Assembly: GCF_006065315.1 (NCBI RefSeq)
Contig: NZ_CP040749.1
Coordinates: forward strand, 2,308,501-2,372,500
DNA from: Aureibaculum algae
Lineage (GTDB): Bacteria > Bacteroidota > Bacteroidia > Flavobacteriales > Flavobacteriaceae
Direction: 5' to 3'
Length of the DNA stretch: 64,000 nt
Below the pieces are notes generated by a model that was not told the DNA's origin, searched no databases, and was given only the letters and a program-made list of their open reading frames with translations. The number at the start of each line of letters is the position of its first letter. Within the stretch, counting starts at the first letter, position 1. Made by a program: the position numbers and the translations under genes. Positions 6,341 through 20,383 of the stretch are shown piece by piece.

Positions 6341-6462
6341 GGAGAAGGGAAAGGAGTGATACATGCGAAGAGAAGAGAGCATAGATATTAAAAAACGAAA
6401 TGGATTATATCATACTATACATACTAATAAAACTATTTAACTAAGTTATAAAAGGCAACTAA

Positions 6463-7956
6463 ATGACAACTAGCTACTTATCATGTAATATATCCCCTTT
6501 AACGGCTTATGTTCCAAGCACAGAAAACCCATGGAATGCCGCAAATGTACGCCACTTGCACAACCGTTTAGGTTTTGGTATTCCGTTTGCTGACATTGCT
6601 AATGCGTTGATTCAGAGTCCATCGGCTTATGTCGATCAGATTATTGATGCCGCAATGGGATTGGCACCAACAGCTTCACCTGGTTGGGCACCGTTAGATC
6701 CTGCTGATTATGCAGCGAACGGATTTACCTACAGTGAAGATGAAAATGATAAGAATAAAGAAACGGCTCAGTATGCATTTATTAAAGAATTAATAGACAA
6801 TGGTGTTCGTGGACGCTTAACTTTTTTTTGGCATAATATCATAGTGACCAGAATTAGTGAATATGATTTTGCAGGCTACGCCTTTCGATATTTTCTTGCC
6901 TTACAACGCCATAGTTTTGGCAATTTTAAAACTTTTATTCATGAAATTGGCTTAGATGAAGCCATGCTTAAATTTTTAAATAGTTTTGATAATGTAGTAG
7001 GCCATCCCAATGAAAATTATGCAAGAGAATTGTACGAACTTTTCACCTTAGGTGAAGGTAATGGCTATACCGAAGATGATATTGTAAATACCGCGAGAGC
7101 CTTAACAGGATATAATGAATATGAAAATGGTGAAAATTCTCGTATTATTTTTAATGTAGAAAAATTTGATGCAGAACCTAAAACTATATTTGGTCAAACC
7201 GGTAATTGGGGCTATGACGATGTAATTAATATTTTATTTGAGCAAAGAGCAGATCTCATTGCACGTTATATCTGTGAAAGAATCTATATCGATTTTGTGA
7301 GTCCTGAAGTAGATGAAGACATTCGGACCTTAATTATAAATCCACTCGCCGCACAGTTTGTTGCAAATGGTTTTGAAATAGCTCCTATTTTAAAAACCTT
7401 ATTTAAGAGTGCTCATTTTTTTGATGCCAATGCTAAAAGTGTCATTATTAAAAGTCCATTAGATTTGATTGTTCAATTTATGACTTCTACAGGGCTTGAT
7501 TATGGAGACTATGACATGAATAAGGAGTCTATAAAAAATATATCCTCTTGGCTTTTCGATCAGAATATTTTGAATCCACCCACCGTTGCGGGTTGGGATG
7601 GAGATAGAGACTGGTTAAACTCAGGTACTATTACCTTTAGAGCAGGTTATTTGATTGATGATGTATTGCAATGGGCATGGGAACAAGACCAAGAACAATT
7701 TAGAGAATTTGCGATAGATGTATCAAGTAATAGCAATGATGCAGATGTTGTAGCTACGGCCATTTTTGAAGCATTAATGAATGAAATTCCCTATACCATG
7801 GATGATTATACTGTGGGTGTAGATGTATTTAAAAGTAGAGTGCCTTCCAATTATTTCGATGACAATACTTGGACCTTAGGCTTTGAAACGGCCACGCTCC
7901 AAGTCCGCGATTTATTAGAGTATATCGTATCCTTACCAGATTATCAAATTAAATAG
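6463..7956 (+). CDS. DUF1800 domain-containing protein
   Basis: A 497-residue protein of the DUF1800 family (PF08811). The diagnostic pieces are HLHNRLGFG near the N-terminus, VRGRLTFFWHNIIV (about residue 112-125), the core GHPNENYARELYELFTLGEGNGYTEDDIVNTARALTGY (written here only as the markers NENYARE and ELFTLG), and NPPTVAGWDG...WLNSG near residue 370. Members are always found beside a DUF1501 gene, as here: the DUF1501 start lies 5 bases after this stop. The function is unknown; the pair is thought to act at or beyond the cell envelope. No clear signal peptide is visible. Confidence 0.9.
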   Translation: MTTSYLSCNISPLTAYVPSTENPWNAANVRHLHNRLGFGIPFADIANALIQSPSAYVDQIIDAAMGLAPTASPGWAPLDPADYAANGFTYSEDENDKNKETAQYAFIKELIDNGVRGRLTFFWHNIIVTRISEYDFAGYAFRYFLALQRHSFGNFKTFIHEIGLDEAMLKFLNSFDNVVGHPNENYARELYELFTLGEGNGYTEDDIVNTARALTGYNEYENGENSRIIFNVEKFDAEPKTIFGQTGNWGYDDVINILFEQRADLIARYICERIYIDFVSPEVDEDIRTLIINPLAAQFVANGFEIAPILKTLFKSAHFFDANAKSVIIKSPLDLIVQFMTSTGLDYGDYDMNKESIKNISSWLFDQNILNPPTVAGWDGDRDWLNSGTITFRAGYLIDDVLQWAWEQDQEQFREFAIDVSSNSNDADVVATAIFEALMNEIPYTMDDYTVGVDVFKSRVPSNYFDDNTWTLGFETATLQVRDLLEYIVSLPDYQIK

Positions 7957-7961
7957 AACTT

Positions 7962-9560
7962 ATGTGTACAGATAAAAATTTTCATGCCAGTTGTAAAACT
8001 GAAGATCATAAGAAATGGAACAGACGTTCTTTCCTACAAACCTTAGGGTTAGGTGGGGCAGGTGCTACCTTAATGGTAAACGGAATTCCGATGGCATATG
8101 GGCAACCAACAGCTTTAACAAAAGCCTTAGGAGAGTCAAGTAGTGATAGAGTATTGTTAATCATTAGATTGCAAGGTGGTAATGACGGATTAAATACCAT
8201 TGTACCTATTTATGATTATGACAGTTATGCCAATCACAGACCGACGTTAAAGCACGAAATGGCTGATATTTATAAGTTAACGGAAGAATTTGGAGTGCCT
8301 AGTTATTTACAAGACTCCATGGAAGCCCTTTGGGAAGGTGGTTGTATGAAAGTGGTAAATGGTACAGGTTATGAAAATATGAACTTATCGCATTTTACAG
8401 GAACTGATAATTTCTCCAGAGGTACGGATGATGATTTGGTAGAAACGGGTGTCTATGGACGTTATTTTGAAGATTTATATCCTGATTTTTTATTGAATTT
8501 ACCCAAAGCTCCTCCAGCCTTACAAATTGGTGGTATGGGTGATATTATGTTTAAAGGAACCGATGCTAATTATTCCTTTACCATTGCCAATACAGGTCAG
8601 TTAGAACGAATTGCTTCTGATGGTACCTTATACAATGTGGCTGATGTACCTGACTGTACCAAAGGTTCTCAATTAAAATATGTACGTGGTGTTTTAAATA
8701 CTACGTTAAAATATTCAGAAGTAATAAAAGAGGCAGCGGCAACGCAAACCAATACGGTTGAATTTCCTGATACTAATTTAGGTAAATCACTGTCAATTAT
8801 TTCTAAAACAGTTAAAGCGGGAATGGGTACTTGTGTATATATGGTAAACATAAATGGATTTGATACGCACGCCAATCAACCCGAAAAACATCAAGAATTA
8901 TTGACAGATATTTCTGAATCGGTACAAGCATTTTATTTGGATTTAGAACCAAGTGGACGCGATCGTGATGTGTTAACGATGACCATGTCAGAATTTGGGC
9001 GACGTGTAAAACAAAATGGCTCTAACGGAACCGATCATGGTACGGCTGCACCAATGTTACTTTTTGGTCCCGCCTTAAATGGTAACGGATTTATCGGAGA
9101 ACATCCAAGTTTAACCAATTTAACACGCGGTGGAAACTTAAATTATACACAAGATTTTATCAACGTTTATGGTACGGTAATGCAAGAATGGCTTTGTGTA
9201 GATTCTGCAGCTATCAATGAATCGATTCCACGACCTTATGTACCTTTAGATTTAGGATTTTCTTGTAGTAGTAAAGTGACCAATCACGATTATTTAATCA
9301 GAGAAAAGTTTCAACATACGGCGATATATGATCAAGATCAGGTCGCTATTCGTATTGAAAATAACGAAGAAGGTACGTATAAAATATCCCTATTTAATAT
9401 CATAGGTCAACAAACAGGCGTGTTGTTTGAAGACCGTTTAGAGGCAGGACAACATGATATTTCTATTTCAGAAAAGTGGCCACATTTAGCCGCTGGTGTT
9501 TATATTTATAATATCAATAAAGACAATAAAAATTACAGTAAAAAAATAGTAATTTCTTAA
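7962..9560 (+). CDS. DUF1501 domain protein with twin-arginine signal and type IX sorting tail
   Basis: A 532-residue DUF1501 (PF07394) protein. The N-terminus carries a twin-arginine motif, NRRSFLQTLGLGG (about residues 21-33), so export in folded form through Tat is likely. The body has sulfatase/alkaline-phosphatase-like family landmarks: LQGGNDGLNTIVP, NGFDTHANQ, TMSEFGRRVKQNG and GTDHGTAAPMLLFG. The C-terminal 75 residues (ISLFNIIGQQTGVLF...AAGVYIYNIN...KKIVIS) are a type A sorting domain of the type IX secretion system, so the protein should be delivered to the cell surface. It forms a two-gene operon with the DUF1800 gene. The combination of Tat signal and type IX tail is seen in this family in Flavobacteria. 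Activity is unknown. Confidence 0.92.
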   Translation: MCTDKNFHASCKTEDHKKWNRRSFLQTLGLGGAGATLMVNGIPMAYGQPTALTKALGESSSDRVLLIIRLQGGNDGLNTIVPIYDYDSYANHRPTLKHEMADIYKLTEEFGVPSYLQDSMEALWEGGCMKVVNGTGYENMNLSHFTGTDNFSRGTDDDLVETGVYGRYFEDLYPDFLLNLPKAPPALQIGGMGDIMFKGTDANYSFTIANTGQLERIASDGTLYNVADVPDCTKGSQLKYVRGVLNTTLKYSEVIKEAAATQTNTVEFPDTNLGKSLSIISKTVKAGMGTCVYMVNINGFDTHANQPEKHQELLTDISESVQAFYLDLEPSGRDRDVLTMTMSEFGRRVKQNGSNGTDHGTAAPMLLFGPALNGNGFIGEHPSLTNLTRGGNLNYTQDFINVYGTVMQEWLCVDSAAINESIPRPYVPLDLGFSCSSKVTNHDYLIREKFQHTAIYDQDQVAIRIENNEEGTYKISLFNIIGQQTGVLFEDRLEAGQHDISISEKWPHLAAGVYIYNINKDNKNYSKKIVIS

Positions 9561-9871
9561 TTACACAGACTATTTGTTAATTAAAATTAAAACGCTTCCT
9601 AATTCGGTAATTTCCGAAAATAGGGAGCATTTTTTCAGTATTGGACTATCCTTAATTCCTTTTTTATCGTGTGTATTCCTACAAATCACAAGGTCTTAAT
9701 TGTAAATATCCTTTTTAATTTACTTCATTATAGGTAAAAATCATTACTTTTAAAATCTACATTGTTTTAAAAAAACATGTCGCTTAAATTTATATGAATC
9801 ATTTGAATGTCTATTTTTAACAGTAATGGGAGCTTAAAATAAATGCATTCTACCCAAAAAATTCAAATTTT
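9561..9871. other. Intergenic stretch before the DUF4251 gene
   Basis: It holds the terminator at 9594-9635 and a likely promoter region for the DUF4251 gene in the AT-rich second half; a sequence TTACTTTTA near 9745 resembles a Bacteroidota -7 box. Nothing else was recognised. Confidence 0.5.
9594..9635 (+). terminator. Rho-independent terminator after the DUF1800/DUF1501 operon
   Basis: GCTTCCTA (9594-9601) pairs with TAGGGAGC (9621-9628), with one T-G wobble, and TTCGG pairs with CCGAA inside it. A run of six T follows at 9630-9635. It lies 34 bases after the stop codon at 9560. Confidence 0.85.
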
Positions 9872-10375
9872 ATGAAAAAGAATAGGCTTTTATTTTATTG
9901 TTTTATGTTGGTCATGACTACAACGATGTTGACCGCTCAATCTAAAAAGGAATTAAAAATGCAAAAGAAATTAGCAGAGTATGCTAAAACAAAAATACTG
10001 GTTCAAAAGGGTCAGTTTGTTTTTAAAACATCATATATAGTTACCCAAAAAGGAGATCGGACCGAGGCGATAGGTGATGGTTTACTCATTGAAGATGATA
10101 AAGCTTATGCCAATTTTCCTTTTATTGGCAATATGAATAGAGGTACGTTAAAAGGATCAAATAATATTGAGTTCAACACTTCGGAAACAGATTTTGATAT
10201 AGAATACAATGACAAGCGAAGAAAAATATTTGTAAAATTTGAAGCCAAAGATAAAAATGAGAGTTATAGTATCTATATAACCATTTTAGGCACCGGAAAA
10301 GCTACGGTTCAAATTTCTTCAAGTTCTAGGGGGATTATGAGTTATGAAGGTGAAATACAAAAAGTAGTCATTTAA
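9872..10375 (+). CDS. DUF4251 domain-containing exported protein
   Basis: A 167-residue protein with a signal peptide (MKKNRLLFYCFMLVMTTTMLTAQ). After a lysine-rich linker it shows the DUF4251 (PF14059) pattern: GQFVFKTSYIVTQKG, GDGLLIEDDKAYANFPFIG, GTLKGSNNIEFN, DFDIEYNDKRRKIFVKFEAK and YSIYITILGTGKATVQISS. The family is exported, small and beta-rich, found in Bacteroidota, and has no known function. The gene stands alone and is followed by a strong terminator at 10465-10496. Confidence 0.8.
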   Translation: MKKNRLLFYCFMLVMTTTMLTAQSKKELKMQKKLAEYAKTKILVQKGQFVFKTSYIVTQKGDRTEAIGDGLLIEDDKAYANFPFIGNMNRGTLKGSNNIEFNTSETDFDIEYNDKRRKIFVKFEAKDKNESYSIYITILGTGKATVQISSSSRGIMSYEGEIQKVVI

Positions 10376-10464
10376 GAAAACTATTTTTAGTTTATAAAAG
10401 AAGTAAATAAATTCAATGCTGTATTGATAAATGAAGTATTGCAAAACTATTGAGTTTAGCAAAT

Positions 10465-10496
10465 AAAAAAACCATTACGAAAGTAATGGTTTTTTT
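10465..10496 (+). terminator. Rho-independent terminator with GAAA tetraloop
   Basis: ACCATTAC (10471-10478) and GTAATGGT (10483-10490) pair around a GAAA loop; flanking A6 and T6 extend the stem to 14 base pairs. The A/T symmetry lets it work in both directions. It ends the DUF4251 transcript. Confidence 0.9.
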
Positions 10497-10555
10497 ATTT
10501 TGAGTTTTCTCGAATGTATTATAGAGATATTATTTATGGAATAATAAGTTTCAAT

Positions 10556-10603
10556 TTCCCCATTTTTAGGGATTGACTACTGCAACCTTAGCATCTAATT
10601 TAG
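10556..10603 (+). promoter_or_regulatory. Island promoter A: G/C-run dyad, TTG -33, N20, TAATTTAG -7
   Basis: The dyad CCCCATTTTTAGGG (10558-10571) is followed by TTG at 10573-10575, exactly 20 bases, and TAATTTAG at 10596-10603, one change from the Bacteroidota -7 consensus TAnnTTTG. Promoters B (12832-12878) and C (15155-15111, minus strand) have the same TTG-N20-box layout directly after a G/C-run dyad. A and B also share the flank ATTGA(C/T)TAC. This arrangement suggests an activator bound at or just upstream of the -33 element. Confidence 0.6.
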
Positions 10604-10707
10604 CCACTAATAATAGTAGAATAATCATTTTACTATCTACCCAATTTCTCTAAAACCGGGAAGCTGAAAACGGAATAGAGTAGGCTTAAAAAAAAGAAAA
10701 AGAGATC

Positions 10708-12765
10708 ATGGTAAAATTAGATGACAAACAATTGATGCTTGCTAGGCAAGAGTTTCATTCTTTTGTAACTCTAGGTGAAAAAGCATTCACAAAATTGAAA
10801 TTTAAAACAGATTTTAAATTTTTTAAGAGCAAAGGCAATAGTTCTTTTGAAGAATTAGGTTGTGTAGGTTATAATTCGACTTTTAAAGAATTAACCGCGA
10901 CAATTAGAATTAAAAAAACAAATGGATATTCAGGTAATCTTTGTACAAATGGTTCTTTTGAATATGTTCGTTTTTATTTAGATTATGAAGATGGCAATGG
11001 CTGGCAAGATATGGGCTATACCGGATTTAATGTACACGATATTCCAACAGGAAAAGATTGTGATGGTAAAAATGAAAAACCAATCGATTATGTTGTTCGT
11101 TTAAAGATTAACCCTAAAAGATATTTTTGCACCAAAGAAAACCTACCAAAAGTGAGGGCTATTCTATCGTGGAATTCAATACCAACACCTAATGACCCCA
11201 ATCAAAATGTAGGTACTTATACTTGGGGCGATGTAAAGGATGAATATATTCAAATTAGTCCTTTTAAATTTATATTTCCTGACTTCCCTAAATTAGATAT
11301 TGGCTTTTTACTAGAAAAGGCAATTAGTAATCCATCAATTTCACTCAATCAAATTGCCCAAAATGAAATTGGTGGAATCGACTTTTTAAATAAAGCCATT
11401 AAAGAAATTACTCCTTCTCCCTCTAGCTTTAAAGAGCTGGCTATAAATTATAAAAAAAACAAAGTTGAACCTCATCGCTTTGGTTTTAGCTTGCTTCAAA
11501 AAGCAATTCAAACGAATGATTTAAAACTAAAACAAAATATTGCAGACATTTTTGAGGCTCAAAAATATCCTTTTTTAGACAGTTTGGTTAATTTTCATAA
11601 AATGAAATGTAATACAGATTATGAAGAACTTTATTGTGTGGGTGCAGACTATCATCAAGAAGCTTTGGTAGGTACTTTTAAAATTAAAAAGTCATCTGGT
11701 TATAGCGGAGGTTTGTGTAAAAAAGGCAGTAAGGAATATGTTTCTTTTTATATTCAGGAAGAAAATAGTTGCGACTGGAAACATGCAGGTACAAGCTTTG
11801 TAGAGGTACATGATTTAAACTCTATACCTAGTAACGGTTTATCATACGCTGTGACATTGCCTTATAATTTTTCTAAATTGAAAAAGAAATGTACAGATCC
11901 TCAAGTACTAAAAGTAAGGGCTGTCCTTTCATGGAATACACCACCAACAAGTATGAATTGTTCCCATTATGGAAATGTAGTAGAATCTTATATACAAATA
12001 AGTCCAACTACTTATTCAGGTGTAGGTCCTCATATGAAAATTGTTGGAGGTATTTATACTTCTCAAATAAATGCCTTAACAGGTTTGACCATTCCGGGTG
12101 CTTATTTTGCACAAGGCGTTCATCCCGTAAAGGACGATTGCCCTTTTGGTGGTTTAATTACCATTCAAGGTGATACATTTCCAGGTCAAAAATATAAAGT
12201 GAAGGTGACTAATTTGGTTAGTGGTATTAGTTATTATGTCAATGATGATGTAATACTTGATACATATAGTGCTTTTCCTGCTATAATAGCTAATAGTTCT
12301 TATGAATATACATATCCTCCTCACGCGTTTAATACGGGTAACTATATTGCTCAATTTAAGCCTGGAACTAACGATATGTTGCTAATAACAATTGAACATC
12401 TTGATGGAACCTTCGATAGTCAAGTAATTAAAATGGATAATTCAACTTTACATGCTACCATGACAATAGATGATAGTGGTAATTGTACACACTACACTAA
12501 AGGTGATACAATTCATGGTGAATATACTGTTGATGTTGATTATCTTGATAATTTTATATTAACAACGACTGTAGATAGCACTATTGGAACGAATACGATT
12601 GCGTATGGTTCAAATAATGTCAGTGGAATGGACTTTAGTATTATCACTGCTACAGATAAAAATTGTGGCAACATACATTTAAGAGCTTACGCAAAAACGA
12701 TTTGGGATAGTAGAACGAACAATAGATATATTCCAGTAAATATCACAGTATGTTTAAAAGATTAA
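10708..12765 (+). CDS. Hypothetical protein with a duplicated GYSGxLC/LSWN domain
   Basis: A 685-residue protein of unknown function without a signal peptide or membrane segment. A domain occurs twice, at about residues 38-192 and 302-443. Shared landmarks in order are EEL(G/Y)CVG, IKK-x2-GYSG-x-LC, GS-x-EYV-x-FY, VHD, C near the end, and VRAILSWN or VRAVLSWN, then YIQISP. Between the copies is a helical stretch (about 193-300). The last 240 residues form a beta-rich region with several cysteines (DDCPFG, GNCTHY, DKNCGN). I have a loose memory of this domain in hypothetical proteins of other phyla but cannot name a family. The gene has its own promoter (A) and terminator (12785-12818), yet shares promoter layout with the radical-SAM pair downstream. 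It could be a substrate, a scaffold or an effector of that pair; this is inference. Confidence 0.75.
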   Translation: MVKLDDKQLMLARQEFHSFVTLGEKAFTKLKFKTDFKFFKSKGNSSFEELGCVGYNSTFKELTATIRIKKTNGYSGNLCTNGSFEYVRFYLDYEDGNGWQDMGYTGFNVHDIPTGKDCDGKNEKPIDYVVRLKINPKRYFCTKENLPKVRAILSWNSIPTPNDPNQNVGTYTWGDVKDEYIQISPFKFIFPDFPKLDIGFLLEKAISNPSISLNQIAQNEIGGIDFLNKAIKEITPSPSSFKELAINYKKNKVEPHRFGFSLLQKAIQTNDLKLKQNIADIFEAQKYPFLDSLVNFHKMKCNTDYEELYCVGADYHQEALVGTFKIKKSSGYSGGLCKKGSKEYVSFYIQEENSCDWKHAGTSFVEVHDLNSIPSNGLSYAVTLPYNFSKLKKKCTDPQVLKVRAVLSWNTPPTSMNCSHYGNVVESYIQISPTTYSGVGPHMKIVGGIYTSQINALTGLTIPGAYFAQGVHPVKDDCPFGGLITIQGDTFPGQKYKVKVTNLVSGISYYVNDDVILDTYSAFPAIIANSSYEYTYPPHAFNTGNYIAQFKPGTNDMLLITIEHLDGTFDSQVIKMDNSTLHATMTIDDSGNCTHYTKGDTIHGEYTVDVDYLDNFILTTTVDSTIGTNTIAYGSNNVSGMDFSIITATDKNCGNIHLRAYAKTIWDSRTNNRYIPVNITVCLKD

Positions 12766-12784
12766 ATCTTTTTCTCAAATTGGT

Positions 12785-12818
12785 AAAACAGCTTCTACCC
12801 CTAGGAGCTGTTTTATTT
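12785..12818 (+). terminator. Rho-independent terminator after the 685-aa gene
   Basis: AAAACAGCT (12785-12793) pairs with AGCTGTTTT (12806-12814) around a 12-base loop containing CCCCTAGG, followed by ATTTTT. It separates the 685-aa transcript from promoter B, which begins only 14 bases later. Confidence 0.85.
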
Positions 12819-12831
12819 TTACAGATCAAAA

Positions 12832-12878
12832 TCCCCAAAAATGGGGATTGATTACCACAATAGACTGGTTTATTTTTA
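12832..12878 (+). promoter_or_regulatory. Island promoter B: CCCC-N6-GGGG dyad, TTG -33, N20, TATTTTTA -7
   Basis: The dyad CCCCAAAAATGGGG (12833-12846) is followed by TTG at 12848-12850, 20 bases, then TATTTTTA at 12871-12878. The predicted transcript start near 12885 leaves a leader of about 36 bases before the ATG at 12921. Over 30 positions the upstream element matches promoter A at about 20. Confidence 0.65.
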
Positions 12879-12920
12879 TAAAATAAAACTTAACTTTTTA
12901 ATGAACTTAAAACTTTAAAT

Positions 12921-13244
12921 ATGGAACAAACTTTAGATTATGAAAAGACCTTAATGGCACATTTGTCTGATAGTAGATTAGATAAAACAGCATTGAAAAA
13001 ATATTCTAAAATTATTGCAACATTACGTAAATATGATGTGATAATTGATAGAATATGGAAATACGGAATACCCTATCCTGACGGGGTAGTAGTGCGAGGT
13101 AGGCTAGGAGTAAAAGACCTTGCAAAGTTAAAAGATGTATTTAAAATTCCAGAAATATATGGTATTGAGATTTTCCCACTTGGAATTCCATTTCCTGACT
13201 TGTTAGATGTTCGATTTAAGTTGGGAGAACAATTTCAGAAATGA
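12921..13244 (+). CDS. 107-aa protein with twin GIP[YF]PD motif, coupled to radical SAM gene
   Basis: No family recognised. The first 45 residues look helical and charged. Then a 15-residue motif appears twice: residues 49-63 and 88-102, both fitting GIP[YF]PDxxxVRx[RK]LG. There is no signal peptide and no cysteine. The stop codon TGA overlaps the ATG of the radical SAM gene (ATGATG at 13241-13246), so the two are translated together. Small proteins coupled to radical SAM enzymes are often either precursor peptides or peptide-recognition (RRE-like) partners. The repeated motif would fit a substrate with two equivalent modification sites, but the size and helical start would also fit a binding partner. 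The sequence alone does not decide. Confidence 0.75.
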   Translation: MEQTLDYEKTLMAHLSDSRLDKTALKKYSKIIATLRKYDVIIDRIWKYGIPYPDGVVVRGRLGVKDLAKLKDVFKIPEIYGIEIFPLGIPFPDLLDVRFKLGEQFQK

Positions 13245-14317
13245 TGACTTTAAATACAAAAAACTCCCCTTGTGAAAGGAAGACACGGAATGATAATTTT
13301 TTGGACGGATTCCGTGTCATCCATTTGCATCCCAATTTAAGTTGCAACCTAAGCTGTAAACATTGTTATTCAAGTTCTGCTCCGGGTTTAAAAAAGGAAC
13401 TAGATTCTAATGAAATAATTGGTTTCTTAAAATATGCTTGGGAGTATGGTTTCAATGCACTTTCAGTATCAGGAGGTGAGCCATTTTTATATTCTAGTTT
13501 ATCGGAAGTTTTGAAGGAAAGTAAAAATATTGGATATAAAAATCTTGTGGCATCTAACGGGATGCTTCTTAAAAGTGAAAGAGCAAAAAATATATTAAAG
13601 GATATTGATTTAATAGCTGTTAGTATTGATGGTGATGAGTTGCTACACGATGAAATTAGAAATTTTAAAGGTGCATACTCTAAAATGATAGAGGGGGTAG
13701 AAATTTTGAAGGAATTAGATATAGACTTTGGTTTTATTCATACCCTCACACCTAAGAGTTGGGATTTAATTTTATGGCTTTCAAAATTTGCAAAAAATAA
13801 TGGAGCAAAATTGCTTCAGTTACATCCTCTTGAGCTTTATGGTAGAGCAAAAGTAGAGATGAACACCACTAAAGTTGATCAACAATTATTACATAAGGTA
13901 TATATTCTAGGAAATTTTTTAAAAAGTAAATATTATCCAGAGTTGCTTTTTCAATTGGATTTTTTGCACCGTGATAACATGGTCGAACATCCGGAATCAG
14001 CAACTTACTTTGGCACCAACTTCAATCCTGATAAAACAAATTTATCACAGGCACTTAAAACGGTTGTAATTGATGAAAATGGGACTATTTTACCCATTTC
14101 ATATGGTTTTTCTGATAAGTTTAACATTGGAAATATTAATGAAATTGCTCAAAATATTGATGTTTTTGACCGATTTATAAATGAGAAGTGGGAGTCATTA
14201 TATCAACTTCTCGAAGACACTTATTTCTCAATAGTTAATGATAAAGAAAATGATCTTGTTGCATGGACGGAATTAATTGTTAAAAACAGCAATAGCCATA
14301 TAAATATACCGATATAA
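13241..14317 (+). CDS. Radical SAM protein with cysteine-free twitch-like C-terminus
   Basis: A 358-residue radical SAM enzyme. The 4Fe-4S/SAM motif is C35-x3-C39-x2-C42 in LSCNLSCKHCYSS, followed by SVSGGEPFL (GGE motif), VASNGMLL and AVSIDGDE. The C-terminal part reads VVIDENGTILPISYGF...IGNINE, the layout of a SPASM/twitch region (as in V-x-PDG-x-hhPC-x-YG), but the expected cysteine is isoleucine, and no cysteine remains after C42. Thus only the SAM cluster should be present, unless a partner adds ligands. The gene overlaps the 107-aa gene by 4 bases and converges on the LuxR-type regulator. A 10-bp stem-loop (13282-13318) lies within codons 14-26. Likely role: modification of a peptide or protein, perhaps the 107-aa or 685-aa product. 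The radical SAM call is firm, the substrate is inference. ATG at 13244 is an alternative start. Confidence 0.88.
   Translation: MMTLNTKNSPCERKTRNDNFLDGFRVIHLHPNLSCNLSCKHCYSSSAPGLKKELDSNEIIGFLKYAWEYGFNALSVSGGEPFLYSSLSEVLKESKNIGYKNLVASNGMLLKSERAKNILKDIDLIAVSIDGDELLHDEIRNFKGAYSKMIEGVEILKELDIDFGFIHTLTPKSWDLILWLSKFAKNNGAKLLQLHPLELYGRAKVEMNTTKVDQQLLHKVYILGNFLKSKYYPELLFQLDFLHRDNMVEHPESATYFGTNFNPDKTNLSQALKTVVIDENGTILPISYGFSDKFNIGNINEIAQNIDVFDRFINEKWESLYQLLEDTYFSIVNDKENDLVAWTELIVKNSNSHINIPI
13282..13318 (+). other. 10-bp perfect inverted repeat inside the radical SAM coding region
   Basis: GACACGGAAT (13282-13291) and ATTCCGTGTC (13309-13318) are perfect complements around a 17-base loop. The position, about 40 bases after the start codon, could affect translation or mRNA stability, or it may be chance. 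Confidence 0.5.
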
Positions 14318-14361
14318 TAATCTTAACCTAATTGACACACTGAAGGCAGAATTGATAAATA

Positions 14362-15048
14362 TTATAAATCAATTACTTTGGAAGCCCTTTTAATAAGTTG
14401 AGCCGTATTTTTAACTTTAAACTTTTCGATTAAATTTTTACGATGAGAGATAGCCGTATGGTTACTAATATAAAGTTTATCTGCTATTTGTTTAGAGGAA
14501 AACCCATCTCCAATTAATCCCAATACTTCCCTTTCTCTAGATGAAATTGGATAGGACTGTTCGCTATTGGATGGGTTAAATTTTATAAGTTCATTAGATT
14601 TAAAACAATGTTCTATTTTTTCTTTTTCTGAAATATCAAAAAGATAATTTACAAGGAGGGAATAATCTTTTAATTTGTACATGAATATTTCATGCTTTAT
14701 AAAAATTCTTTTTTTAAAAACATTAGTGATATGATACCTAAGGTTTAATTTTTGATAAATATGGGGTGGGGTGATAAAGGCTTTTATTTTTTCCTTAACT
14801 ACTTTTGATTCTTTAAAATCGATCAGCTCAAACCAAAACTCCCAACCTTGATCAAACAACTTAGGATAATTTTCACCAATAAACTTTTTTATTCCTTCAT
14901 TACAACATAAAAATTGTTCGGTTTCAATGACATAGATACTAATCATTGAATTTTTCGAAGATTCATCTGCGTTGATAATTTTCGAAATTTTTGATATTAA
15001 AAAATTCCGAGTCAAATCAAAAACCTTATGTTTTCCAATTGGAATCAT
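14362..15048 (-). CDS. LuxR-type HTH transcriptional regulator with PAS-like N-terminus
   Basis: A 228-residue regulator. The C-terminal 65 residues are a LuxR-type HTH (SSREREVLGLIGDGFSSKQIADKL, then NHTAISHRKNLIEKF). The N-terminal 150 residues resemble a PAS-like sensor (ISIYVIETEQFLCCNEGIKKFI...ISEKEKIEH) and have no receiver-domain aspartates, so it is probably not a classic response regulator. The reading frame reaches a TTG at 15141 and an ATG at 15135, but both lie in promoter C. I choose the ATG at 15048 because the -7 box at 15118-15111 and a leader of about 57 bases fit it. It converges on the radical SAM gene, 45 bases apart. It likely controls itself and the two operons of the island, because all three promoters share one layout. 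Confidence 0.8.
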   Translation of the reverse strand: MIPIGKHKVFDLTRNFLISKISKIINADESSKNSMISIYVIETEQFLCCNEGIKKFIGENYPKLFDQGWEFWFELIDFKESKVVKEKIKAFITPPHIYQKLNLRYHITNVFKKRIFIKHEIFMYKLKDYSLLVNYLFDISEKEKIEHCFKSNELIKFNPSNSEQSYPISSREREVLGLIGDGFSSKQIADKLYISNHTAISHRKNLIEKFKVKNTAQLIKRASKVIDL

Positions 15049-15110
15049 TTTTAGTCGGTTATGAATTAAATTTGGGAAGATTTTAAATGTGATAACTCCT
15101 ATTATCAAAT

Positions 15111-15155
15111 CAAAAATACAATTATATCTAGCCATTGTCAAGGGGGTATTTCCCC
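15111..15155 (-). promoter_or_regulatory. Island promoter C (regulator gene): G/C-run dyad, TTG -33, N20, TATTTTTG -7
   Basis: On the minus strand GGGGAAATACCCCC (15155-15142) is followed by TTGAC (15141-15137), then TATTTTTG at 15118-15111, a perfect TAnnTTTG box. The gap between TTG and the box is 20 bases, the same as in promoters A and B. A second related run, GGGGAAAACACC, lies 13 bases further upstream (15178-15167). The G and C runs are in opposite order to A and B, so the protein-binding site may differ in detail. This promoter also argues for the regulator start at 15048. Confidence 0.6.
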
Positions 15156-15298
15156 TTTTTACGAAAGGTGTTTTCCCCTTTTCTAATCAATAGTATATCT
15201 ATTAGAAGTACTACTTATGGAATTTAAACTCATTGACTGGTAAAATTGTAGAATTTAGTGGGTTTTAAAAATGAGTCTATTGATGGTACTAAGCACTT

Positions 15299-15535
15299 TT
15301 ATTTTAAAACCGCGATATATCCTTTGTTGTATGCATCACCTATTTGGTAGGTAAAGCCATGTTCTTTTAAACAACGTGTTACTCTGTTTTTCATACCTTG
15401 AGAATTACCAGTGATAATTTGTAGGGGTAAAAAACTCTGATTTAACAATACATAATCTTCTACCAATTCTTGTACGTCAGAATAGGTAACACCATGAAGG
15501 TCCAATGGAGGTTTTCTAAAGAATAATTTTTTCAT
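15299..15535 (-). CDS. Smr/MutS2-type domain protein
   Basis: A 78-residue protein made of one Smr domain: LDLHG at residues 11-15 (core motif), then LVEDYVLLN and IITGNSQGMKNRVTRCLKEHG, matching the usual TGxGxxG...V loop in a diverged form (TGNSQGM). Smr domains bind or cut branched DNA or RNA; MutS2 carries one at its C-terminus. This stand-alone version is short and probably acts with nucleic acid in the cytoplasm. The third glycine of the loop is changed, so nuclease activity is uncertain. The gene lies 41 bases downstream of the octaheme gene on the same strand and may be cotranscribed with it. Confidence 0.8.
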   Translation of the reverse strand: MKKLFFRKPPLDLHGVTYSDVQELVEDYVLLNQSFLPLQIITGNSQGMKNRVTRCLKEHGFTYQIGDAYNKGYIAVLK

Positions 15536-15576
15536 TACAAATGGTATATAAGCGTCCTAAGGGAATCACAATTTAT

Positions 15577-17823
15577 TTATGCTTGATTTAATGTTTTCAT
15601 CAAGTTTTGATAATTGGTATTATTAGGATCTAGCTGAATCAATTTATTTATAATAGGGATGGCTTTTTTAACTTCTTTCTGGTTTACATACTGAAAAGCT
15701 AAGGCATATAGTAAATCTTCGTTATTGGGATAGATTGTAATGCCTTCTTTTAATGTTTTTTCAGCAGCTTTCAAATTATTTACTTTGCCATACATTAAAC
15801 TCAGGTTATAGATCACACGGATATTATCTGGTAGTAAAGCATAGGCCTTTTCCATTTCAGCAATGGCATCGTCAATCCTATTTAGTTCAGCAAGCAATAA
15901 GCCTAAAGAATAATAGGTAATTCCGAACTCAGGTTCTTGTTTAATAACCTCTCTAAATGCTTTTTCGGCGTTGTTAGGCTCTCCTAAATTATAATAGATA
16001 TTGGCTAAATTACTACGAACAATATTATTATTAGGATCAATTTCTAAGGCTTTTTCATAGCCTATTTTAGTGTTTTGTAAATCACCTTTCTTTTGGTAAT
16101 AAGTTGCTTTTGTGGCTTGTCCACCACTAAAATCAGCATTTATTTTTAAATAGCTCTGAAATTCCTTACCTGCTTTTTTATAAGCATCGGCATAAGTTGC
16201 TGGTATATTTGTTTCAGGCACATCACCTAAGGCAAAATAGGCTTTTATTCGAATAGATCTTTTCGCATCTTTTAATAAGGGTAATAAATACGACATAAAA
16301 TCCGTTGTATTCGATTGGCTTAATACATCAAGTGTAGCACCACGAACTAAGGGTGATTTGTCATTTAAAAACGCCATAAATTCATCAAAACGACTTTGTA
16401 AATTATAGTTTTGAAGAGCCTTTACTGCTGAAGCTCTTGCAATATCTGGCTGTTTTTCATTTTGAACTAAATCAAACAACCCTTCATGTGCATTGGGTAT
16501 TCCAACAATTCCCGGAGCCAATTGATCTGAAAAATGGATACTATCTGGCTGTCCATATAATTTTTGAAAACCTTGCCACGCCCATTCATTTGTCTTATCC
16601 GTATGGCATTGCACACAGGCATTAGGCGTATCATATTTGATGCTTTGATCAGGTCTCGGTATTCTAAAACTATGATCGCGTCTGTAATCATTACCCATAT
16701 ACGTTCTACCCACCATATGACAATTGATACATTGTGTAGCGTCTTCAAATCCTTCATGCTTATGATGCGAAGCTACATTGTATTTTGTAGGTTCGTGGCA
16801 TTGCATACAGAGTTTATTGCCGTCAAATTTTAATTTTAAGGAGTGTGAATTGTGACAATCTTTGCAAGAAACACCATTGTTATACATTTTACTTTGAACA
16901 AAGGAGGCATAAACATAATCTTCATCTAATATTTGACCATCAGCATTATACGTAGGAGCTTCTAATAATTGTGGAAAATAATGGTCAAGCATCGTGCCTT
17001 CATAATTAAAATTCTCTGAAACTTGTTCACGTCTCATATGGCATCTTGCACAGGCATCTACCAATTGGTGCGAAGAAATATTAGAAGTCATGTGTAAATT
17101 ACTAGCAGCAGAATCGTAGTCATTACCCAACTCCTTAACTTGGTTAATATGATCTTTTCCCGGTCCATGACAGGCTTCACAGCTTACATTAATTACAGAA
17201 TATTTGGTGTCGTATTTCTTAGTAGCTTCATCATAATTTTCTCTAACATTTGTAGAGTGACAATCAGCACACATATTGTTCCAGTTCAAACCACCTCTAG
17301 ACCAATGTAGCCATTCAGAATGTACTACTTTAAAATCAGGATAAAGATCAAACCAGATTTCTTTCTCAGTGTCCCATGCCGTTCTTAAGGCTTGATAGGC
17401 TCCATCAGGAAATTGAACTAAATATTGTTGTAAGGGTTTTACACCAAAGGTATAAGCGACCTTATAATCGTGATTTAACCCGTCAGGCCCTTCTGTATTC
17501 GCATAGAATACGCTATCTTTTATAAAGAACGTAGAAGTTACGCCTTGACTTTTAAATACTTCTCCTTCAAATTTTGCCAAAACAGTTTCACGAGTTGGAA
17601 GTTCCATGGCTCTATCATGATCAGATCCTTTCCAGTCTTTAAATTGGTCTTGATGGCATTCCTTACACGATTCGCTACCTAAAAAATGTGCATCGGGTAT
17701 CACTTTCGTTGAAATTCCGGTAGTTTCTTTGGTTTCTAGTTTTTTGTATTTTTCTTTTTTATCCCCACAGGCAGTCAATAATAGTGTAGTAAGTAGTAGA
17801 AAAAAAGTAATTATTTTCGGCAT
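15577..17823 (-). CDS. Octaheme c-type cytochrome lipoprotein fused to HEAT-like and TPR repeats
   Basis: A 748-residue exported lipoprotein: signal MPKIITFFLLLTTLLLTAC with a lipobox cysteine. Eight CxxCH heme motifs follow in the first 400 residues (CKECH, CADCH, CEACH, CARCH, CKDCH, CMQCH, CINCH and CVQCH). The middle part (about 420-530) has HEAT-like helices (ARASAVKALQN, VRGATLDVLSQ, IRIKAYFALGD), and the C-terminal 200 residues are TPR units (KIGYEKALEIDPNN, AEKAFREVIKQEPEFG, AIAEMEKAYALLPDN, AEKTLKEGITIYPNN). Such fusions are frequent in Bacteroidota and are thought to carry electrons in the periplasm, related to cytochrome c554/NrfA-like multihemes; the partner is unknown. The frame opens with a TTG at 17838, but the ATG at 17823 begins the signal peptide. 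Confidence 0.9.
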   Translation of the reverse strand: MPKIITFFLLLTTLLLTACGDKKEKYKKLETKETTGISTKVIPDAHFLGSESCKECHQDQFKDWKGSDHDRAMELPTRETVLAKFEGEVFKSQGVTSTFFIKDSVFYANTEGPDGLNHDYKVAYTFGVKPLQQYLVQFPDGAYQALRTAWDTEKEIWFDLYPDFKVVHSEWLHWSRGGLNWNNMCADCHSTNVRENYDEATKKYDTKYSVINVSCEACHGPGKDHINQVKELGNDYDSAASNLHMTSNISSHQLVDACARCHMRREQVSENFNYEGTMLDHYFPQLLEAPTYNADGQILDEDYVYASFVQSKMYNNGVSCKDCHNSHSLKLKFDGNKLCMQCHEPTKYNVASHHKHEGFEDATQCINCHMVGRTYMGNDYRRDHSFRIPRPDQSIKYDTPNACVQCHTDKTNEWAWQGFQKLYGQPDSIHFSDQLAPGIVGIPNAHEGLFDLVQNEKQPDIARASAVKALQNYNLQSRFDEFMAFLNDKSPLVRGATLDVLSQSNTTDFMSYLLPLLKDAKRSIRIKAYFALGDVPETNIPATYADAYKKAGKEFQSYLKINADFSGGQATKATYYQKKGDLQNTKIGYEKALEIDPNNNIVRSNLANIYYNLGEPNNAEKAFREVIKQEPEFGITYYSLGLLLAELNRIDDAIAEMEKAYALLPDNIRVIYNLSLMYGKVNNLKAAEKTLKEGITIYPNNEDLLYALAFQYVNQKEVKKAIPIINKLIQLDPNNTNYQNLMKTLNQA

Positions 17824-17988
17824 AAAATGTAATAACAAATGAGAGGATAAAGCTATTGTAAATATAGTGAAATAAAAAATTTTGCTTTTTTTAATTGAAT
17901 TTATTTATGTGCATTAAAAGTTCTTCTTTTATGAGTGACAGAAGGCGTATTTATTTTTAACTTTACATTTCAAATCATTAAAATAAAA

Positions 17989-18969
17989 ATGAATCTACAG
18001 CCTCAAGTAATTACCCTAAAGAATAGTAAAGGATTAGCAGCAGAAATTTCCAATTTAGGAGCTTCTTTATTAAGCTTAATAGTACTTGATAAAAAGAATA
18101 ATCCTATTAATGTTGTTGTGGGTCTGGAGAAGCCTGAAGCTTATTTTGGTCAAGAATATTTGAATAATTATAATTGTTTAGGAGCTTCAGTGGGCAGATG
18201 GGCAGGTAGGATATCAGGTGGTAAATTTGAAATAGAAGGGAAGGAATATCCGCTTTACAACGAGGATGGTGTGCATCTACATGGTGGCAAAGAAGGTTTT
18301 AGTAAGAAATATTGGAACATTGAAAAGCTTACAAAAAATAGCGTCACCTTATCTTATGTTAGCGTGGATTTAGAAGAAGGTTATCCCGGAAATTTAAAAG
18401 TTTCTGTACACTATGAGCTTACGGAGAACAATGCGTTAAAAATTGTGTATAAAGCGACAACCGACAAAACAACTCCCGTAAATTTAACCAATCATTCTTA
18501 TTTTAATTTGGAAGGATATGGATCAGTTTTGGATCATGAATTGAAATTGAAAAGTAATAAATATGTAGAGCTGAATGAAAAGTTATTGGTGACCGGTAAT
18601 TTTATTGAAACCAATAATACAAGCTATGATTTTTCGGATAAGTCTATTCTAGGAAAGGAAGGTTTTACAGGTTTAGATGATGTTTTTGTGTTGAATGCTG
18701 ATGCTTCTTATAAGGCGGTTTTATCATCATCAAAAACGGGTATAGAAATGAAAGTACAAACCAATCAGCCAACGCTTGTAGTGTATACACCAATTCAATT
18801 ACCTGATTTAACGTATAAAAATAATGCCAATTTCACCAAATACTCAGCCATTTGTTTTGAAGCTGAGGCGTATCCTGATGCTCCAAATCAGTCTGATTTT
18901 CCGTCTGCTTTGTTACATCCTGGAGAAACCTATTTGAATGAAACCATTTTTGAATTTTCAATACAATAA
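17989..18969 (+). CDS. galM: Aldose 1-epimerase (galactose mutarotase)
   Basis: A 326-residue galactose mutarotase that interconverts alpha and beta anomers of aldoses in the cytoplasm. Landmarks: GASVGRWAGRISGGKF, VHLHGGKEGFSKKYW (first catalytic-site histidine region), NLTNHSYFNL (second histidine), LDDVFVL, and near the end CFEAEAYPDAPNQSDFPS with the glutamate base region and LHPGETY. Length matches the family. The ORF can be opened at a GTG (17935), but the ATG at 17989 removes a non-homologous hydrophobic stretch and follows a TAACTTTAC promoter-like box at 17957-17965. It is divergent from the octaheme gene and followed 82 bases later by cydA, which has its own promoter. Confidence 0.92.
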   Translation: MNLQPQVITLKNSKGLAAEISNLGASLLSLIVLDKKNNPINVVVGLEKPEAYFGQEYLNNYNCLGASVGRWAGRISGGKFEIEGKEYPLYNEDGVHLHGGKEGFSKKYWNIEKLTKNSVTLSYVSVDLEEGYPGNLKVSVHYELTENNALKIVYKATTDKTTPVNLTNHSYFNLEGYGSVLDHELKLKSNKYVELNEKLLVTGNFIETNNTSYDFSDKSILGKEGFTGLDDVFVLNADASYKAVLSSSKTGIEMKVQTNQPTLVVYTPIQLPDLTYKNNANFTKYSAICFEAEAYPDAPNQSDFPSALLHPGETYLNETIFEFSIQ

Positions 18970-18982
18970 AGTGTCATTTTAA

Positions 18983-19026
18983 GCAACCAATGTTACATAT
19001 TAAATTAAATTAAAAAGTAACTTTAC
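18983..19026 (+). promoter_or_regulatory. Crp/Fnr-type operator and promoter of cydAB
   Basis: GCAAC-CAAT-GTTAC (18983-18996) is one base from the palindrome GTAAC-N4-GTTAC found perfectly at three other promoters nearby. TAACTTTAC (19018-19026) is the likely -7 box, starting 22 bases after the dyad. That places the dyad centre near -41, the class II activator position. Confidence 0.65.
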
Positions 19027-19051
19027 GGTCTTATTCTAAAATTTGTCTGCA

Positions 19052-20383
19052 ATGGAAGATATGATCTTTTATGATAGGATGCAATTTGCATTTACTATAA
19101 CATTCCATTATTTATTTCCCCAATTAACCATGGGCTTATCCTTAATGATAGTCTATTTTAAATGGAAATTCCTAAGGAGCAAAATTGAAAAATATAACGA
19201 TGCCGCGAAATTTTGGATGAAAATATTCGCACTCAATTTTGCCATGGGCGTAGTTACCGGAATTCCCATGGAGTTTCAATTTGGTACCAATTGGGCAAAA
19301 TTTTCAGAATTAACAGGAGGTATTATCGGTCAGACACTCGCCATGGAAGGCATGTTTTCTTTCTTTTTAGAATCCTCGTTTCTAGGACTCTTTCTCTTCG
19401 GAGAGAAATTACTTGGTCAAAAACTCCATTTCTTAACGGGGTTTTTAGTGTTTTTAGGATCATGGGCAAGTGGTTATTTGATTATTGCCACACATTCTTG
19501 GATGCAATTTCCAGTGGGTTACGAGATCTTAGAAAACGGGAAATTTGTTTTAAATAATTTTGGAGCATTGTTTTCAAATCCTTGGTTAATGCCAGCCTAT
19601 TTGCATAATCAATTGGCCTCAGTAATAACGTCATCATTTGTAGTAGCGGCTATTGGAGCATTCTATTTATTAAATAATAAACATAGTGAGTTCGGAAAGC
19701 TCTTTGTAAAAACAGGAGTTATTTTTGGATTAATATCAAGTGTACTTGTGGCGTTTCCAACAGGAGATTGGGTAGCTAAAAATGTAGCGAAACATCAACC
19801 TGTAGCATTTGCGGCTATGGAAGGAATTTTTGAAACGGAAACAGGAGGGTCAGAAATTGTATTGATTGGTCAACCTGATATGGAAAATAAAAAGTTGGAT
19901 AACAAAATAGCAGTGCCTAATGTGTTGAGTTTTTTAACCTATCAAAATTGGGAAGCCGAAATTAAAGGATTGAATGAGTTTGATGAAAGCCTACATCCTA
20001 CTAATGTACCCGGCTTGTATTATTCTTATCATATAATGGTAGGTTTGGGTACGCTTTTTATTGGATTAATGGCAATTGCAGCACTGCAATTATATCGTAA
20101 GAAGCTTTATAAATCGAAATGGATACTTTGGTCTATTTTATTTATGCTGCCCTTTCCTTACATTGCAAATACAACAGGTTGGTACACGGCAGAATTGGGT
20201 AGGCAACCTTGGCTGGTTTATAATTTATTAAAGACCTCAGAAGGCGTATCGCCTACAGTTTCATCTGGTAACACGTTATTTACTTTATTAGGTTTTATTG
20301 GTCTTTATTTGTTATTAGGACTTTTATTTTTAATGTTGGCCGGTAAAATTATCAATAAAGGGCCAGAAACCTCAAATCACTAA
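19052..20383 (+). CDS. cydA: Cytochrome bd ubiquinol oxidase subunit I
   Basis: A 443-residue integral membrane subunit of cytochrome bd, which oxidises quinol and reduces oxygen to water with high affinity. Landmarks: FAFTITFHYLFPQLTMGLS with a heme-ligand histidine, FAMGVVTGIPMEFQFGTNW, GQTLAMEGMFSFFLESSFLGLFLFGE, THSWMQFPVGYE, and GWYTAELGRQPW in the periplasmic loop near residue 380. It is shorter than the E. coli protein (about 520 aa) because of a short Q-loop, a common form. TTG at 19043 is an alternative start, but the ATG at 19052 gives the family's N-terminus (MEDMIFYDRMQFAF). cydB follows after 2 bases. A Crp/Fnr-like site sits upstream. Confidence 0.95.
   Translation: MEDMIFYDRMQFAFTITFHYLFPQLTMGLSLMIVYFKWKFLRSKIEKYNDAAKFWMKIFALNFAMGVVTGIPMEFQFGTNWAKFSELTGGIIGQTLAMEGMFSFFLESSFLGLFLFGEKLLGQKLHFLTGFLVFLGSWASGYLIIATHSWMQFPVGYEILENGKFVLNNFGALFSNPWLMPAYLHNQLASVITSSFVVAAIGAFYLLNNKHSEFGKLFVKTGVIFGLISSVLVAFPTGDWVAKNVAKHQPVAFAAMEGIFETETGGSEIVLIGQPDMENKKLDNKIAVPNVLSFLTYQNWEAEIKGLNEFDESLHPTNVPGLYYSYHIMVGLGTLFIGLMAIAALQLYRKKLYKSKWILWSILFMLPFPYIANTTGWYTAELGRQPWLVYNLLKTSEGVSPTVSSGNTLFTLLGFIGLYLLLGLLFLMLAGKIINKGPETSNH

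What the first reader, a model, noticed from the sequence alone, without database searches (positions are those of the whole stretch)
10556..15155. Accessory island: twin-motif small protein, cysteine-poor radical SAM enzyme, duplicated-domain protein and LuxR-type regulator under one promoter design
Seen: a 107-aa protein with a repeated 15-residue motif overlaps a radical SAM gene by 4 bases; a 685-aa protein with two copies of an unassigned domain precedes them; a LuxR-type regulator converges on them; all three promoters share one layout. Known: small genes coupled to radical SAM enzymes often encode the modified peptide or its binding partner. Inferred: a regulated peptide or protein modification system. 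It matches none of the radical-SAM peptide systems I can name, and there is no transporter or protease beside it, so the product may stay in the cell or act on the 685-aa protein.
Basis: partly seen in the sequence, partly recalled or inferred. Interest (0 to 1): 0.82.

Follow-up and report, generated by a model that had tools for sequence, protein, structure and literature searches.

The report
Radical-enzyme and twin-glycine protein pair
In a flavobacterial genome a radical SAM enzyme is coupled to a small protein carrying a doubled glycine motif, a pairing that recurs in several phyla but is named in neither protein family library searched, and here it sits in an exchangeable island with the kind of DNA switch that a related species has at its injection-machine genes.

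Summary
The anatomy is real. The 107-aa and radical SAM genes overlap by ATGA, and this two-gene unit recurs: in 34 of 42 radical SAM family loci, in several phyla, I assigned a small motif-bearing ORF just upstream. A model trained on 17 Bacteroidota-type partners hits 18 of the 35 other family loci and 0 of 38 heme-type control loci. In 34 aligned partners only two residues are invariant, the glycine of each motif copy. Seven relatives have double-glycine leaders, two of them beside a C39-motif transporter, so the small protein is probably the substrate. No NCBIfam, Pfam or splicease assignment fits.

The 685-aa protein is not part of it: no relative at 80 radical SAM loci, no partner genes at 12 of 12 homologue loci examined. 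It is separate cargo.

The island (about 10381-15296) is absent from one sister species. Another keeps the LuxR gene and both palindromic operators but carries different cargo. In a third, a one-mismatch operator precedes an eCIS-like operon, and a LuxR relative follows eCIS-type genes on another contig. Best reading: a radical-SAM protein-modification module under an eCIS-type switch. Its chemistry, and binding of the regulator, are unproven.

The parts
10381..15296 (.). accessory island between the DUF4251 gene and the Smr-like gene
   Evidence: In same-genus genome G636 the DNA matching the window up to 10380 and from 15297 lies 85 bp apart (about 94-95% identity on both sides); in G635 the site holds the same regulator and operators but other cargo
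10557..10576 (+). palindromic presumed operator 1 before the 685-aa gene (TCCCCATTTTTAGGGATTGA)
   Evidence: exact copy at the same place in G635 before different cargo
10654..10686 (+). DUF805b-like RNA (RF02914, small cis-regulatory structure)
   Evidence: 34.0 bits, gathering score 35.6, E 6.3e-07; above gathering before the gene in 5 of 12 685-homologue loci, below it in a sixth
10708..12765 (+). 685-aa protein with duplicated domain, modelled mostly as beta strands in several domains; independent cargo
12832..12851 (+). palindromic presumed operator 2 before the 107-aa/radical SAM operon (TCCCCAAAAATGGGGATTGA)
   Evidence: exact copy at the corresponding place in G635; 1-mismatch copy before an eCIS-like operon in G640
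12921..13244 (+). 107-aa twin-motif protein, probable substrate of the radical SAM enzyme; Gly49 and Gly88 invariant in 34 aligned partners
13241..14317 (+). 358-aa radical SAM enzyme without SPASM/twitch cysteines
14362..15141 (-). LuxR/GerE-type regulator, related to regulators that follow eCIS-type genes in two genomes of the same genus
   Evidence: PF00196; relatives in G640 and G642 follow eCIS_core and AAA genes; a third relative, in G637, does not
15142..15155 (.). G/C-box palindrome GGGGGTATTTCCCC next to the LuxR start, possible autoregulatory site
   Evidence: sequence; same in G635; similar AAGGGGAAAATTCCCCTT before the G640 LuxR gene; also scored as a terminator-like stem

Best explanation
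The 107-aa protein and the radical SAM enzyme are a two-gene module in which the enzyme, using only its SAM-binding iron-sulfur cluster, modifies the small protein at its two x-G-[I/Q]-P turns, most likely by attacking the invariant glycine of each copy or the residue next to it. In one clade of relatives the partner has become a short peptide with a double-glycine leader and, in some cases, a C39 exporter, that is, a typical RiPP precursor; here it stays a small folded protein without leader, protease or exporter, so the modified product probably acts inside the cell. The module is one of two independent cargoes (the other is the 685-aa protein) in an exchangeable island held together by a LuxR regulator and two copies of its presumed operator, a regulator-operator pair whose relatives in a sister species accompany genes of an extracellular contractile injection system (eCIS). 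Shown: gene pairing, motif conservation, empty site, cargo exchange with conserved regulator and palindromes, the near-identical palindrome before an eCIS-like operon. Inferred: that the small protein is the substrate, the site and chemistry of modification, that the LuxR protein binds the palindromes, and that the product stays in the cell.
For: Pairing: small motif-bearing ORF just upstream in 34 of 42 family loci. Control: model built from 17 Bacteroidota-type sequences hits the upstream ORF at E 0.01 in 18 of the 35 other family loci against 0 of 38 control loci (31 of which had any ORF to test); the motif pattern in 27 of 35 against 3 of 38. The control enzymes are NirJ/AhbC-like in 10 of 10 tested of the 38. 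Only Gly49 and Gly88 are invariant in 34 aligned partners. Seven of the 34 locus partners have a double-glycine leader (sequences, read by eye) and two of these seven have a C39-motif ABC protein just downstream; six of their enzymes form one group in the tree (97/79, not starred; one split in 98% of 200 bootstrap trees). Island. Operators: zero-mismatch hits in six genomes only at the four island promoters of G000 and G635; the only 1-mismatch hit ends about 75 bp before the first gene of an eCIS-like operon in G640. LuxR relatives after eCIS_core and AAA genes. GerE regulators lie next to 25.8% of eCIS loci in PMC8213781 (passages).
Against: The 107-aa protein is modelled as a compact fold (pLDDT 79.6), so the glycines could be conserved for the turn. 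No leader, protease or exporter was seen among the ORFs listed between 6000 and 20000 (read by eye). 8 of 42 family loci have no assigned partner, among them five of five Saccharothrix. Six of the seven double-glycine peptides are not found by the partner model at E 0.01 and are linked by motif and position only. C39 proteins were recognised by a sequence pattern in 2 of 7 loci only. The eCIS-like operon and the LuxR gene of G640 lie on different contigs, and its sheath match is below the Pfam cut-off (20.9 of 31.4 bits). A third LuxR relative (G637, match with two stops inside) is not beside eCIS genes. Two-mismatch operator hits are at control level. G000 itself has no sheath or eCIS_core protein at E 0.001.
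Confidence: 0.55

Rival explanations
1. The 107-aa protein is not modified; it is a delivery or recognition partner (as RRE proteins are) that presents another substrate, for example the 685-aa protein, to the enzyme.
For: It is modelled as a folded helix-helix-beta-beta-alpha-beta-beta domain and is 65-91% identical over its length in the nine close relatives.
Against: Broad conservation is limited to the two glycines; short double-glycine-leader forms keep little but the motif; no 685 relative at any of 80 radical SAM loci and no partner gene at 12 of 12 685-homologue loci examined.
Confidence: 0.25
2. The enzyme is a tyramine-excising splicease acting on the K-Y-G of the first motif copy.
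For: The first copy reads W-K-Y-G in the window and in all nine close homologues; spliceases act at X-Y-G (passages of PMC10533398).
Against: PlpX is a SPASM enzyme of IPR026482 (passage of PMC11002830), which I recall as TIGR04103; this enzyme scores 52 bits there against a cut-off of 725 and lacks SPASM cysteines. The second copy has L-G, and the residue before glycine is also K, N, R, L or I in relatives.
Confidence: 0.07
3. A special case of the best reading: the enzyme is epimerase-like and inverts a residue next to each glycine (as YydG and PoyD do), leaving the mass unchanged.
For: No SPASM cysteines; YydG is among the eight PDB sequences matched by the family profile at E 1e-10.
Against: The YydG match covers only profile positions 23-129; the one extra Cys column (24 of 45) is Leu in this enzyme, so the hydrogen-donor cysteine of known epimerases (recalled) is not evident.
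Confidence: 0.12
4. The glycines are structural, the gene pair belongs to a metabolic or cofactor pathway (NirJ/AhbD-like), and the small protein is a subunit of the enzyme.
For: Best NCBIfam scores of the enzyme are to NirJ and AhbD (89.5 and 79.3 bits).
Against: Those scores are far below the cut-offs (515 and 500) and stop near residue 210, whereas ten tested control enzymes match NirJ or AhbC models nearly end to end; control loci lack the partner, 0 of 38.
Confidence: 0.1

Closest known systems
Radical SAM RiPP systems (precursor gene followed by radical SAM maturase)
   Same: Small gene directly before, in some loci overlapping, a radical SAM gene; repeated short core-like motif; in one clade double-glycine leaders and in 2 of 7 of those loci a C39-motif ABC protein
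   Different: No SPASM or twitch cysteines; no leader, protease or exporter here; the partner is a ~100-aa protein modelled as folded. Of 34 partners only three family matches appeared, all weak and one member each: one rSAM-modified RiPP model, TIGR04149, at E 0.024, and two unrelated Pfam models at E 0.049 and 0.074
PlpXY splicease / spliceotides (PMC10533398, PMC11002830, passages read)
   Same: Radical SAM enzyme acting on an x-x-Gly motif; tagged whole proteins can be substrates
   Different: SPASM enzyme of another family, Tyr before Gly, accessory PlpY and nitrile-hydratase-like or Nif11-like leaders
eCIS GerE/LuxR regulator (PMC8213781, passages read)
   Same: LuxR-type regulator; relatives in two same-genus genomes follow eCIS-type genes; near-identical palindrome before an eCIS-like operon in one
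   Different: Here no eCIS sheath or core protein was found; regulator and palindromes accompany exchangeable cargo genes
DUF805b RNA (Rfam RF02914)
   Same: 33-nt element directly before the 685 gene and before five homologues above the gathering score
   Different: The window copy is 1.6 bits below the gathering score

Membership tests
Radical SAM superfamily | CxxxCxxC motif and Radical_SAM domain over the curated cut-off | tested here: met
   PF04055 64.4 bits, cut-off 29.5; C35, C39, C42 invariant in A1
SPASM/twitch radical SAM maturases | auxiliary-cluster cysteines in the C-terminal part | tested here: not met
   only the CxxxCxxC triad is near-universal; one other Cys column, 24 of 45 rows and Leu here
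RiPP system | conserved small gene just before the maturase | tested here: met
   34 of 42 family loci; control 0 of 38 by model
RiPP system | leader with protease or exporter in the locus | tested here: not met
   none seen among ORFs of 6000-20000; only in relatives: 7 leader peptides, 2 with a C39-motif protein
RiPP system | enzymatic modification of the small protein | not testable with these tools
   needs mass spectrometry of co-expressed protein
PlpX splicease | family model score (TIGR04103; its identity with IPR026482 is recalled) | tested here: not met
   52 bits against a cut-off of 725
PlpX splicease | X-Y-G target | tested here: not met
   only the first copy has Y-G here; position before Gly varies among relatives
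NirJ / AhbD heme enzymes | curated model score | tested here: not met
   89.5 of 515 and 79.3 of 500 bits
Radical SAM epimerases (YydG, PoyD) | C-terminal hydrogen-donor cysteine (recalled) and full-length similarity | tested here: inconclusive
   YydG matches profile positions 23-129 only; no conserved extra Cys in this enzyme
eCIS-linked GerE regulators | GerE domain and adjacency to eCIS genes | tested here: inconclusive
   GerE met; adjacency seen for relatives in G640 and G642, not in G637, and G000 has no sheath or eCIS_core protein
DUF805b RNA | score at or above the Rfam gathering score | tested here: not met
   34.0 against 35.6 bits, E 6.3e-07; whole-window gathering search empty

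The most novel reading that the evidence does not exclude
A SPASM-less radical SAM enzyme chemically alters a folded cytoplasmic protein at two invariant glycine turns, a modification system that spans several phyla and from which a clade of exported peptides branched off, and in this lineage the module was captured into a cassette island driven by the transcriptional switch of an eCIS.
Probability: 0.3. Interest if true: 0.8.

Novelty: new variant of a known kind. Interest (0 to 1): 0.62.

Why it matters
The pair defines a testable radical SAM protein-modification family without a name in NCBIfam or Pfam, with a short motif whose only invariant residue is glycine and with small two-gene members suited to co-expression. 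The island shows a regulator and its presumed operators staying in place while the genes they serve are exchanged, and links that switch to contractile injection systems, which gives a handle on how eCIS genes are controlled in Bacteroidota.

Tried and rejected

Rows dropped: alignment A4 leaves out ten of the 34 locus partners (seven double-glycine peptides, L009, L022, L030) and L096, so 'only two glycines invariant' holds for the 34 rows aligned (window, nine database homologues, 24 loci). The 34 assignments were chosen by me from the ORFs, with gaps of -107 to +209 bases to the enzyme's ORF (L010, L016 and L022); 30 of 34 have the strict G-x-P form, L003, L011, L022 and L041 only G-I-x-type variants. 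The tree leaves out L004, L005, L026, L033, L041, L095. L095 repeats the contig of L003. The tree was built by mistake on small ORFs (an overwritten file) and is not used. The 13th other genome with a 685 relative, G001, was not examined for neighbours.
Full report
What is there. Four genes lie at the stated place: a 685-aa protein (10708-12765), a 107-aa protein (12921-13244) overlapping a 358-aa radical SAM enzyme (13241-14317) by ATGA, and a LuxR/GerE-type regulator facing them (14362-15141). The twin motif of the 107-aa protein is far above chance (9 of 18 identical; 0 of 1000 shuffles as high). The enzyme has the catalytic cysteine triad and no near-universal auxiliary-cluster cysteines. 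The 685-aa protein has two copies of one domain and no Pfam or NCBIfam match at E 1.

The enzyme and its partner. A protein search found nine close homologues of the 107-aa protein; five of these nine have the same longest-contig length as a listed relative of the enzyme, which suggests shared contigs. The enzyme has 683 relatives at E 0.001 or better among 3004 candidates, 120 listed. A profile of the Bacteroidota enzymes splits these 80 into 42 family loci with matches over 150 bits and 38 with 128 bits or less; ten of ten tested of the 38 are NirJ/AhbC-like nearly end to end. In 34 of the 42 I assigned a small ORF just upstream with the motif. In the other eight (five Saccharothrix, L033, L038, L044) I did not; L033 is a short reading frame, and L044 has an overlapping frame with a single D-G-V-P. 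Hosts include Bacteroidota, Pseudomonadota, Actinomycetota, Planctomycetota, Acidobacteriota, Cyanobacteriota and Nitrospirota, and one metagenome-assembled Nitrososphaerota genome. As a test that does not feed on its own members, a model trained on 17 Bacteroidota-type sequences found the upstream ORF at E 0.01 in 18 of the 35 remaining family loci and in 0 of 38 control loci, 31 of which had an ORF to test; the plain motif pattern, which was drawn from the family, gave 27 of 35 and 3 of 38. In its own genome the small protein occurs once; the only other hit is at E 0.53 with stops inside.

Why the small protein is probably the substrate. In an alignment of 34 partners, with identities to the window protein down to 16%, only Gly49 and Gly88 are invariant. 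Across 84 motif instances picked by a loose pattern, which takes in some chance ones, glycine is followed mostly by I, L, Q, T, K or V and then by proline in 58, while the preceding residue is most often Y, K, N, R, L or I. Fourteen of the 34 locus partners carry G-S-x-x-L near the N-terminus, among them three of the double-glycine peptides. Seven partners are short peptides with a leader ending in Gly-Gly (L012, L014, L015, L017, L020, L023, L026, by eye). Two of these seven loci have a C39-motif ABC protein just downstream, recognised by sequence pattern. The enzymes of six of them (L026 left out as partial) form one group in the tree, support 97/79. The window partner has no such leader and is modelled as two helices followed by beta-beta-alpha-beta-beta, each glycine just after the first strand of a hairpin (pLDDT 79.6). 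That fold is the main argument for the rival that the glycines are structural.

What it is not. Of 34 partners, one has a weak hit to an rSAM-modified RiPP model (TIGR04149, E 0.024), and the only Pfam hits are two weak ones to unrelated models (E 0.049, 0.074; one member each). Of six double-glycine peptides scanned against NCBIfam, five have no match at E 0.01 and L014 a sub-threshold one to the BlpC pheromone (16.1 of 70 bits). The enzyme reaches none of the 25 NCBIfam cut-offs shown of 77 hits. The splicease reading fails on family score, cysteines and motif.

The 685-aa gene is separate. None of the 80 radical SAM loci has a 685 relative at E 0.001, though some are short contigs; the LuxR query met only GerE-region matches in four Saccharothrix loci. 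In 249 family genomes the enzyme occurs in 1 (E 1e-40) and the 685 family in 13 (E 1e-20); in 395 phylum genomes both occur in 3 (E 1e-50); each time only this genome has both. Stretches of 15-17 kb around 12 homologues show no relative of the 107-aa protein, the enzyme or the regulator at E 1e-4 in 12 of 12. A DUF805b-like RNA sits just before the gene here (34.0 bits, gathering 35.6), above the gathering score in five of 12 homologue loci and weakly in a sixth, so it goes with this gene family; one also precedes a DUF6895 gene in the sister island, again just below the gathering score (32.4 bits).

The island. In same-genus genome G636 the flanking genes lie 85 bp apart where this window has 4.9 kb; G643 has another gene there. 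In G635 the site holds the same regulator (97% identical protein), the same DNA through operator 1 up to window 10625, the same operator 2 and the LuxR-side palindrome, but the cargo is a 738-aa protein with a DUF1360-type and a further small protein after operator 1, and a subtilase/VWA protein and a DUF6895 protein after operator 2. Across six genomes the 20-bp operator occurs without mismatch only at these four promoters. With up to two mismatches there are seven further hits, three of them the reverse strand of an operator already counted (in G000, G635 and G640), against six for the reversed control pattern, so two-mismatch hits mean little. The single 1-mismatch hit, in G640, ends about 75 bp before a gene set of a DUF4255-like protein (named by recall), a further protein and a sheath-like protein whose Pfam score is below the cut-off (20.9 of 31.4). 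A LuxR relative (50%) of that genome follows an eCIS_core (108.7 bits) and an AAA gene on another contig. The same order is seen in G642 (52%, 51%), whose sheath match is over the cut-off. A third relative, in G637, has stops inside its match and no eCIS genes beside it. G000 and G635 have neither sheath nor eCIS_core protein at E 0.001. In PMC8213781 GerE regulators are reported next to 25.8% of eCIS loci (passages). So the regulator and palindromes look like an eCIS switch serving other, exchangeable genes. Binding is inferred.

Verdict. A real, conserved two-gene radical SAM module with a probable protein substrate, in an exchangeable island under an eCIS-type switch. I call it a new variant of a known kind: it works like a radical SAM RiPP pair, but it does not meet the leader/exporter feature here and its chemistry is unknown. 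The odds given for the readings overlap, since the epimerase case is part of the best reading.

Noticed in passing
window 10654-10686; L083, L085-L088; L114:5486-5518: A DUF805b-type RNA (RF02914) lies directly before 685-family genes in several Flavobacteriaceae and, below threshold, before a DUF6895 gene in the sister island; loop and tail letters seem to co-vary by eye, which I did not test.
   Followed up: partly
L112:5271-8170 and L114:1-7088 (genome G635): The sister island carries other cargo: a 738-aa protein with an N-P-Q-P-D-P-P stretch, a DUF1360-type protein, a 1389-aa subtilase/VWA protein and a DUF6895 protein.
   Followed up: partly
L149:8912-12437 and L134:4185-8078 (genome G640): An eCIS-like gene set with the palindrome before its first gene, and on another contig an eCIS_core protein, an AAA ATPase and a LuxR relative.
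   Followed up: partly
L021, L024, L025, L028, L029: Five Saccharothrix genomes have the enzyme family without a recognisable small partner upstream; the partner may be different or elsewhere.
   Followed up: no
window 6463-9560: DUF1800 and DUF1501 genes, the latter with a Por secretion tail, left of the island.
   Followed up: no
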